Positions 5,390-7,494 of a stretch of DNA of 64,000 bases are shown here, in pieces. The notes beneath the pieces were generated by a model that worked only from the letters and a program-made list of their open reading frames with translations, was not told the origin of the DNA and searched no databases. Positions within the stretch are counted from its first letter, which is position 1. Each line of letters opens with the position of its first letter. The translations under genes and the position numbers were made by a program. The DNA comes from Pseudanabaena sp. PCC 7367 (GTDB lineage: Bacteria; Cyanobacteriota; Cyanobacteriia; Pseudanabaenales; Pseudanabaenaceae), in NCBI RefSeq assembly GCF_000317065.1, contig NC_019701.1, positions 62,001 to 126,000 on the forward strand. The letters run 5' to 3'.

Positions 5390-5995
5390 CTAATAACTAG
5401 ACTTGGCCGTCAGCTTAGACTTAGCAATCTTCGATCGGGCAACGGCAGTTCTGGCCTTATCTTCCAGATAGATTTTGATCATGCGAATATTTTTCTGGCA
5501 TTCGGGGATTAAAACCTTCTCAAACAAATTAATCCGCTGCGTCACTTTTTTGAGGGCGGCATCCAGCTTTTCTACTCTTTCTTCTAAGATTTTGACCTGG
5601 AGCGTCATTCGCGCAATCTCCTGCAAAGACTCCACCAGATTATCAAACCACAGCGGTGCACCCAGGGTGGTGTAGGGATGCACCACAAAATTAATTTCAC
5701 CCAAAACCGGCAAAATTACCCCAGCTACATTTTCATTGCGGGTTTCCCATCCCTTCAATCGCACCAGGCCATGCAACTGTACTGAAGTATCACCCAGCAG
5801 AGCAACCCAATCATCTATTTGTGCTTGATATTGGACTAGTCTTTGTTTTTGCTCACTCAACATCCGCCTAGCCTTGCCCGCTTCACCCTGGAGCTGTTGC
5901 TTTTTTAAATCCAAGGAAGGCAAGAACTTTTGATAGGTATCTTTTTGATCTTTCTGATTTTTAAGCGAACTTTTGTTTAGTGCGACCTTAGCCAT
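5390..5995 (-). CDS. V/A-type ATP synthase subunit D (orphan)
   Basis: 201-residue protein matching subunit D of the bacterial V/A-type rotary ATPase, the central rotor shaft linking the A3B3 head to the membrane ring. Diagnostic blocks are LNKSSL then FLPSLDLKKQQL at the N-terminus, the middle PLWFDNLVES block, and the C-terminal INLFEKVLIP, IRMIKIYLED and ARSKIAKSK. The N- and C-terminal thirds are long helices, as expected for this shaft. The wording is closest to the chlamydial-type bacterial D subunits I know. Usual operon partners (E, A, B, I, K) are absent from the window; neighbours are uvrA and prmA. Only one CGATCG word occurs in the gene, fewer than in adjacent genes, so transfer is possible. 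The ATG at 5993-5995 fits the family start. Identity is firm; function alone is unclear. Confidence 0.9.
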   Translation of the reverse strand: MAKVALNKSSLKNQKDQKDTYQKFLPSLDLKKQQLQGEAGKARRMLSEQKQRLVQYQAQIDDWVALLGDTSVQLHGLVRLKGWETRNENVAGVILPVLGEINFVVHPYTTLGAPLWFDNLVESLQEIARMTLQVKILEERVEKLDAALKKVTQRINLFEKVLIPECQKNIRMIKIYLEDKARTAVARSKIAKSKLTAKSSY

Positions 5996-6168: not shown

Positions 6169-7077
6169 CTAATTAGAGCGCCGAATCGTAAGACAGCTCC
6201 ACTCCTGCCGCTTCCATAGCGTCGCAATCACCCAATTATGTCGATCTAGCTCTTCTGCAATCAACGGTACTTGCTCTAGCAAAATGCCACTCAAAATACC
6301 CCAACCATTAGGTTTAATTAACTGCTCCATGTAGGGGATCATATCAACAATAATTTCCGCCAGGATATTACAGGCAAAGCCATCCACTGGGGTAGGTAAA
6401 CTTTTGAGCAGATGTCCCATGCTGCCAACGTCTGCCCAGAGGCGATCGTCATCGATCTGATTGCGTTGGAAGTTTAATCTGGTTGCCTTGATCGCCAAAG
6501 AATCAGTATCAACCGCATAGACCTTACTCACCCCCAATAAAATTGCGCCAATTCCCAAAATCCCCGAACCACAGCCAATATCTGCAAAGACAGTGTCATC
6601 ATCTGGCTTGATCCCCATCAGCCGCATTTCCAACGCTTCCAGGCAAAGTTGGGTAGTGGCATGGGCACCAGTACCAAAGGCACTGCCAGGATCAAGATGA
6701 ATAATTTGTCGATCGCCAGGATCTTCTAGTTCAATCCAACTGGGGCAAATCACAAAGGCATCGCCAATTTTTTGCGGTTGCCAATGTTGCTTCCAACTGG
6801 TTGACCAATCCTCTTCGTTGATCATCCGCCAGGTCACGATCGGTGCTTCGGCTTCGATCGCCAGGGCATCTTGGGCTGCCCACAGCGCCAAAGCAGATAA
6901 ATCCAGCAGGGATGACTTTTCGAGCGGTAAATAGGCCTTAATTAAAACCTGATCACCAGCGATCGCACTGGCAGTTCCCTCGCAGCCAAATTTTTGCAAT
7001 CGCCAAAATAACAACTCATCAAGGGCATGGCTGGCTAAGATCTGGATTTCCCACCAATTATTATTGAGGGTTGGCAT
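6169..7077 (-). CDS. prmA: Ribosomal protein L11 methyltransferase
   Basis: SAM-dependent methyltransferase that trimethylates ribosomal protein L11 on lysines. The N-terminal WWEIQ block is typical of the L11-recognition domain. It is followed by LDPGSAFGTGAHATTQLCL and the SAM-binding motif DIGCGSGILGIGA, then CNILAEIIVDMI as the catalytic-loop equivalent. The protein is about 302 residues, normal for the family. I use the ATG at 7075-7077 because the family usually starts just before WWEIQ. An in-frame TTG at 7087-7089 has a GGGAAG Shine-Dalgarno-like sequence 8 nt upstream and is a real alternative. The gene lies about 30 bp behind the DUF4346 gene and is probably co-transcribed with it. 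Confidence 0.95.
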   Translation of the reverse strand: MPTLNNNWWEIQILASHALDELLFWRLQKFGCEGTASAIAGDQVLIKAYLPLEKSSLLDLSALALWAAQDALAIEAEAPIVTWRMINEEDWSTSWKQHWQPQKIGDAFVICPSWIELEDPGDRQIIHLDPGSAFGTGAHATTQLCLEALEMRLMGIKPDDDTVFADIGCGSGILGIGAILLGVSKVYAVDTDSLAIKATRLNFQRNQIDDDRLWADVGSMGHLLKSLPTPVDGFACNILAEIIVDMIPYMEQLIKPNGWGILSGILLEQVPLIAEELDRHNWVIATLWKRQEWSCLTIRRSN

Positions 7078-7107
7078 GGTGTTGACCAACTGAATAACTT
7101 CCCGGTG

Positions 7108-7494
7108 TCAGTCCTGAATATACTCTTGTTGATTAATCAAAGCCTGCTCAGCACGTTGTAACTCTCGTCCTAAGTATGCAGCATGGTCAAGCATAGTCAC
7201 AAAGCAAATTTCACTGCGCTCAAAAATTTTTACACAGACTTCTTTGGCACTATGACCGCTAAAGATGGTGGTGGCCTCACGATTAACCTTGCCCTTAGCT
7301 GGAATTGGCTTACCAGTAGCTGGATCTACAGCCAGGCCGTTCTCATCGATCGCATTAGTAAAATGCTTAGCATGGATTAAACCTTGTTCCGGTTCAAGAT
7401 AAATAATAAAGTAGCCACCAGGGTCAAGCTGAATTGACCGCTTTGACAACTGATCATCTATTTCTTTAATTTGTTGGGCAATGCTGACAATCAT
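7108..7494 (-). CDS. DUF4346 family protein
   Basis: 128-residue cytosolic protein of the DUF4346 family, widespread in cyanobacteria and with no established function. Recognisable blocks are DPGGYFIIYLEPE near residue 25 and the closing HAAYLGRELQRAEQAL followed by QEYIQD. There is no signal peptide or membrane segment. It is the upstream gene of a likely two-gene unit with prmA (18-30 bp gap) and is divergent from purN. The related domain also occurs in MtrA-type methyltransferases of methanogens; that is family knowledge and does not indicate activity here. The ATG is at 7492-7494. Confidence 0.85.
   Translation of the reverse strand: MIVSIAQQIKEIDDQLSKRSIQLDPGGYFIIYLEPEQGLIHAKHFTNAIDENGLAVDPATGKPIPAKGKVNREATTIFSGHSAKEVCVKIFERSEICFVTMLDHAAYLGRELQRAEQALINQQEYIQD

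What the first reader, a model, noticed from the sequence alone, without database searches (positions are those of the whole stretch)
5390..5995. Orphan V/A-type ATPase subunit D in a cyanobacterium
Seen: a full-length 201-residue protein with the clear conserved N- and C-terminal blocks of bacterial V/A-ATPase subunit D, between uvrA and prmA, with no A, B, E, I or K gene in the window. Known: cyanobacteria normally use F-type ATP synthase, sometimes an additional N-ATPase; V/A-type operons usually keep subunit D beside A and B. Inference: either the operon is split in this genome, or a lone rotor shaft has been kept for another role, or it is a transfer remnant. The gene has only one CGATCG word.
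Basis: partly seen in the sequence, partly recalled or inferred. Interest (0 to 1): 0.72.

Follow-up and report, generated by a model that had tools for sequence, protein, structure and literature searches.

The report
Scattered genes of a cyanobacterial V-ATPase
The supposedly lone gene is the rotor-shaft gene of a complete second rotary ATPase whose seven genes, normally side by side, lie at five separate places on this cyanobacterium's chromosome, so the gene is not an orphan but part of an unusually dispersed, probably working ion pump.

Summary
In detail: window 5390-5995 (-) encodes a full-length V/A-ATPase subunit D (NCBIfam NF002565, 200 bits against a cut-off of 189; Pfam 134.6 bits; predicted fold matches solved D subunits). 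"Orphan" is wrong. The same chromosome carries all seven subunits of the F-less, DUF2764-containing V/A-ATPase type known from Bacteroides: E-C(DUF2764), A, B, D and I-K, at five places. There is one D copy and no N-ATPase. Intact E-C-A-B-D-I-K clusters exist in Nodosilinea PCC 7104 and, with K inverted, in another cyanobacterium. Every single-subunit tree groups the scattered genes with these. A second Pseudanabaenaceae genus (an incomplete MAG) shows the same break-up: E-C together, I-K together, D beside uvrA. Catalytic residues are intact, so I read it as a working enzyme whose operon broke up in this lineage. Na+ pumping is likely but unproven (the K ion site keeps Gln65, Tyr68, Gln110, Glu139, with Ser64 and Met61). 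The F-type operon is also broken up here. V-type ATPases were already reported in a few cyanobacteria; full dispersal with full retention is the unusual part.

The parts
5390..5995 (-). V/A-type ATPase subunit D (central rotor shaft), 201 aa, the only D gene in the genome
1975..4926 (-). uvrA-like gene downstream of D; the D-uvrA order is kept in the related Pseudanabaenaceae MAG (uvrA 80% identical, two small ORFs between there); not part of the ATPase
   Evidence: name by sequence, not by a profile
6169..7089 (-). prmA-like methyltransferase gene upstream of D, 173 bp gap; not part of the ATPase
   Evidence: name by sequence

Best explanation
The gene encodes the central shaft of a complete seven-subunit V/A-type rotary ATPase of the Bacteroides type (E, C=DUF2764, A, B, D, I, K; no F subunit). 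In this lineage the ancestral E-C-A-B-D-I-K operon was broken at four of its six junctions, so that E-C, A, B, D and I-K now sit at five chromosomal places, and all parts were kept because the complex still works. Expected mechanism: A3B3 hydrolyses ATP and turns D, which turns the K ring against the stator I/E, moving Na+ (less likely H+) across the membrane beside the ordinary F-type ATP synthase. Shown: identity, completeness, dispersal, shared break-up in a second genus, intact catalytic motifs. Inferred: assembly, activity, ion and direction.
For: Own genome (chromosome 4,557,046 bp): E at C2:3,148,081-3,148,749 and C (PF10962, 51 bits) at 3,148,954-3,149,619; A at 3,277,740-3,279,524(-) (NF003220, 773 bits, cut-off 470); B at 1,443,674-1,445,071(-) (NF002555, 706 bits, cut-off 431); D at 67,390-67,995(-); I at 2,102,923-2,104,770; K at 2,104,998-2,105,465 (NF007200, 156 bits, cut-off 108). 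Only four ATP-synt_ab genes: F alpha, F beta, V A, V B. Intact clusters: Nodosilinea PCC 7104 E-C-A-B-D-I-K, G041 K|E-C-A-B-D-I, Parabacteroides E-C-A-B-D-I-K. All seven trees recover G000 (with G007 where present) + G041/Nodosilinea as one clade, bootstrap 100 on the concatenation. MAG G007: E-C pair, I-K pair and D-uvrA on three contigs, each with non-ATPase genes on both sides. Third codon positions diverge about 1.5-2.4 times more than first positions between G000 and G007 in all five shared genes. P-loop GPFGAGKT and GERAGE in A, SLSRL in B, SYLRLFALGLA in I. No PF01990 (F subunit), as in Bacteroides. K keeps Q65, Y68, Q110, E139 of the E. hirae Na+ site, with S64 for T64.
Against: No expression or assembly data. 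No shared upstream motif in the five units above chance, so co-regulation is unsupported. V-type A and B were not found in the 74%-complete MAG G007, so retention of all seven there is unproven. E has no Pfam hit above cut-off and rests on sub-threshold NCBIfam subunit-E hits, its place beside C and 30-63% identity to E genes of related clusters. Clade support in the D tree alone is weak (0.305). Position 61 of K is Met, the residue listed for H+ enzymes in PMC9006882, and the sister clade has His65 and Leu68, so the ion is uncertain.
Confidence: 0.86

Rival explanations
1. An orphan rotor shaft kept for some other role.
For: No other V-type gene near D in the window.
Against: All six partners exist in the genome and group with the same relatives as D.
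Confidence: 0.02
2. A decaying, no longer working complex: genes scattered and on the way out, with D a remnant.
For: Operon broken; rare in the family (2 of 35 same-family genomes); A and B not found in MAG G007.
Against: All seven frames are full length; catalytic motifs are kept; third-position excess between two genera; the same fragments persist in two genera; MAG G007 is only 74% complete.
Confidence: 0.09
3. Same dispersed enzyme, but a proton pump or synthase rather than a sodium pump.
For: Met61, and Ser for Thr at 64; the sister clade lacks Q65 and Y68; partial Na+ ligand sets occur in H+ enzymes (PMC2359735).
Against: Q65, Q110, E139 and Y68 are kept, residues that PMC9006882 lists for Na+ enzymes.
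Confidence: 0.35
4. Artefact: misassembly or contamination scattered an operon that is really intact or foreign.
For: None specific.
Against: Two-contig genome, completeness 100, contamination 0.08; normal GC and HIP1 around each piece; an independent genus shows the same pieces.
Confidence: 0.02

Closest known systems
Bacteroides-type V-ATPase (E-DUF2764-A-B-D-I-K), e.g. Parabacteroides distasonis L093 and the B. fragilis P207 system in PMC10197588
   Same: Same seven subunits including DUF2764, no F subunit; coexists with an F-type enzyme; the pairs retained here, E-C and I-K, are neighbours in this order
   Different: There one operon; here five loci. A 47%, B 47%, D 29% identical
V-ATPase cluster of Nodosilinea nodulosa PCC 7104 (L052) and of cyanobacterium G041 (L016)
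   Same: Closest relatives found for the subunits outside the family (A 68-70%, B 75-77%, D 58-60%)
   Different: Intact cluster; K inverted in G041; K has His65 and Leu68 in place of Gln and Tyr
V-ATPase of cyanobacteria G192 and G413 and of marine/saline Proteobacteria (order B-D-I-K-E-C-A)
   Same: Same subunit set
   Different: Different gene order and clade, D about 38-40% identical in the cyanobacterial ones; so cyanobacteria hold two separate lineages of this enzyme
Enterococcus hirae Na+ V-ATPase
   Same: Four-helix K with the Gln65/Gln110/Glu139 site; shaft fold of D
   Different: From general knowledge: E. hirae has an F-like NtpG and a canonical C, in one operon

Membership tests
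V/A-ATPase subunit D (PF01813 / NF002565) | profile score above curated cut-off over full length | tested here: met
V/A-ATPase subunit D (PF01813 / NF002565) | two long antiparallel helices with a short beta head, matching solved D subunits | tested here: met
Bacteroides-type seven-subunit V/A-ATPase | A, B, D, I, K present in the genome | tested here: met
Bacteroides-type seven-subunit V/A-ATPase | DUF2764 protein in place of canonical subunit C, with E beside it | tested here: met
   E only by weak profile hits and relatives
Bacteroides-type seven-subunit V/A-ATPase | no canonical F subunit | tested here: met
Bacteroides-type seven-subunit V/A-ATPase | genes in one operon (usual, not required for function) | tested here: not met
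   five loci
Na+-translocating V-ATPase | complete Na+ ligand set in K (L61, T64, Q65, Q110, E139; Y68) | tested here: inconclusive
   M61, S64, Q65, Y68, Q110, E139
Na+-translocating V-ATPase | Na+-dependent activity | not testable with these tools
   needs biochemistry
N-ATPase (the extra ATPase known in some cyanobacteria) | second F-type alpha/beta pair in the genome | tested here: not met
   only four ATP-synt_ab genes: F alpha, F beta, V A, V B

The most novel reading that the evidence does not exclude
A photosynthetic bacterium runs a second, sodium-pumping rotary ATPase assembled from seven subunits encoded at five unlinked places, kept through genus-level divergence after its operon broke up.
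Probability: 0.5. Interest if true: 0.55.

Novelty: new member of a known kind. Interest (0 to 1): 0.4.

Why it matters
It removes an apparent oddity and replaces it with a testable case: a complex that, in the relatives read here, comes as one cluster, but here is kept whole after nearly complete dispersal. Such a case can test how far stoichiometric assembly depends on operons, and whether some cyanobacteria use a sodium V-ATPase under salt or alkaline stress beside the photosynthetic F-type enzyme. It also shows that cyanobacteria hold at least two separate lineages of this enzyme type.

Tried and rejected
A search for a sequence motif shared by the five upstream regions found nothing above shuffled controls; the promoter scan near D found fewer sites than chance. 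The plasmid collection held no close relative of D in cyanobacteria, only Rhodobacterales, Halomonas and Bacteroidales, and the organism's own 329-kb replicon could not be named this way. Considered and rejected: spare D copy (only one D in the genome), N-ATPase subunit, coiled-coil look-alike. The seven weak phylum hits below the Pfam cut-off are taken as chance coiled coils and not counted.

Full report
What is there. The ORF at window 5390-5995 (-) is a 201-residue protein. It passes the curated cut-offs of Pfam ATP-synt_D and of NCBIfam NF002565, V-type ATP synthase subunit D, and matches solved Thermus and mammalian D subunits by sequence. An AlphaFold2 model from 12 homologues has helices 2-67 and 115-199 with a beta hairpin at 78-105, and its best 36 PDB matches are V1 or V/A-ATPase entries, starting with the E. 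hirae V1 complex.

Not an orphan. The window lies in a two-contig genome of 4,885,680 bp, completeness 100, contamination 0.08. PF01813 finds one D only. PF00006 finds four genes: F alpha, F beta, a V-type A and a V-type B. PF01496 and the ORF beside it give I followed by K. PF10962 (DUF2764) gives the C-like subunit, with E directly upstream. NCBIfam and/or Pfam confirm A, B, K, C and I above a curated cut-off; E rests on sub-threshold NCBIfam subunit-E hits (88.6 bits against 241), on its place beside C, and on 30-63% identity to E genes in related clusters. Places on the chromosome (4,557,046 bp): D 67,390-67,995(-); B 1,443,674-1,445,071(-); I-K 2,102,923-2,105,465(+); E-C 3,148,081-3,149,619(+); A 3,277,740-3,279,524(-). 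Each piece is surrounded by unrelated genes with ordinary composition and HIP1 density.

Relatives. Of 35 same-family genomes including its own, only G000 and G007 have D; over the phylum sample 3 of 386 genomes pass the family cut-off (G000, G192, G413). G041 (same class) and Nodosilinea nodulosa PCC 7104 have intact clusters, K|E-C-A-B-D-I and E-C-A-B-D-I-K. Parabacteroides has E-C-A-B-D-I-K too. G192 and G413 have the other order, B-D-I-K-E-C-A, as in Photobacterium, Endozoicomonas and Rhodobacterales plasmids. G007 appears to be the MAG Pseudanabaenaceae cyanobacterium MP8IB2.15: its 9,057-bp D contig corresponds to JARCMB010000306.1. There D sits next to uvrA, E-C form a pair on a second contig and I-K a pair on a third. 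These are the same fragments as in the window's genome, and the D-uvrA linkage is shared. A and B were not found in that MAG, which is only 74% complete, so that absence is open.

Trees. Each of the seven single-subunit FastTree trees puts G000 (and G007 where present) in one clade with G041 and/or Nodosilinea, apart from G192+G413 and the proteobacteria; local support for that clade is 0.87-1.0 in six trees and weak (0.305) in the D tree. The concatenated IQ-TREE tree gives it bootstrap 100. The scattered pieces therefore share one history. Because E-C-A-B-D-I-K is found both in the sister clade and in Parabacteroides, the intact order is most simply ancestral, and the dispersal happened on the branch leading to G000 and G007 by breaks at C|A, A|B, B|D and D|I (inference). 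Whether the cluster entered cyanobacteria by transfer or was lost many times is not resolved; the patchy distribution favours transfer (inference).

Is it working? All frames are full length. A has the P-loop GPFGAGKT and GERAGE, B the SLSRL motif expected to hold the arginine finger, I the SYLRLFALGLA segment with the expected arginine (roles from general knowledge). Between G000 and G007, third codon positions differ at 0.56-0.67 of sites and second positions at 0.12-0.29 in E, C, D, I, K, as for genes under selection, though all five diverge faster than uvrA at the protein level. The F subunit is absent, as in Bacteroides. PMC9006882 lists L61 T64 Q65 Q110 E139 Y68 for Na+ enzymes and M61 for H+ enzymes; PMC2359735 warns that partial sets occur in H+ enzymes. 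I put Na+ at about 0.6.

General operon erosion. The F-type enzyme in this genome is also split: a-c-b'-b-delta-alpha near 2.90 Mb, beta near 1.14 Mb, gamma near 1.995 Mb (the small subunits named by sequence). A split between gamma and beta is normal for cyanobacteria (PMC4154653), but gamma apart from alpha is a further break. So dispersal seems a habit of this genome rather than special to the V-type genes.

Literature. V-type ATP synthase genes were reported in freshwater and brackish picocyanobacteria of sub-cluster 5.2 (PMC9361551); G413 may be of that group (inference). In B. fragilis the DUF2764-type V-ATPase is dispensable in standard medium and crucial in deoxycholate (PMC10197588), which fits a stress-related ion pump. 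I found no paper in the held library that joins this strain with V-type ATPase. Organism: family and replicon sizes suggest Thalassoporum mexicanum (Pseudanabaena) PCC 7367, from memory and not verified.

Verdict. Identity confirmed, orphan status refuted, split operon confirmed. The enzyme is a new member of a known kind; the five-place dispersal with complete retention is the unusual feature.

Noticed in passing
G000:C2 ~1.141 Mb, ~1.995 Mb, ~2.903-2.907 Mb (L086, L094, L085): The F-type ATP synthase genes are also dispersed: gamma lies about 0.9 Mb from alpha, which it normally follows in cyanobacteria. This points to general operon break-up in this genome.
   Followed up: partly
L034, L037-L041, L043, L045, L047-L051, L090, L091: In many proteobacterial loci, including two Rhodobacterales plasmids, arginine-deiminase-pathway genes (arcA, arcB or arcC homologues) lie near the V-ATPase cluster. 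This suggests that ATP from arginine catabolism feeds the pump; not seen beside the cyanobacterial copies checked.
   Followed up: partly
L016:5229-5895: Subunit E of the otherwise intact cluster in G041 is split over two overlapping frames, a frameshift or a sequencing error.
   Followed up: no
L028:3574-6255: In G192 a transposase-like (TnpB-type, by eye) ORF and an acetyltransferase-like ORF lie between subunits C and A, perhaps an early step of cluster break-up.
   Followed up: no
L092:1375-5600: The Halomonas sp. KO116 plasmid carries B, D, I and K-like sequence of a V-ATPase cluster; no E, C or A in the stretch read.
   Followed up: no
window 7108-7494: A 128-aa DUF4346 (PterinBD) protein (106 bits) upstream of the prmA-like gene, related to the C-terminal part of dihydropteroate-synthase-like and methyltransferase proteins.
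   Followed up: no
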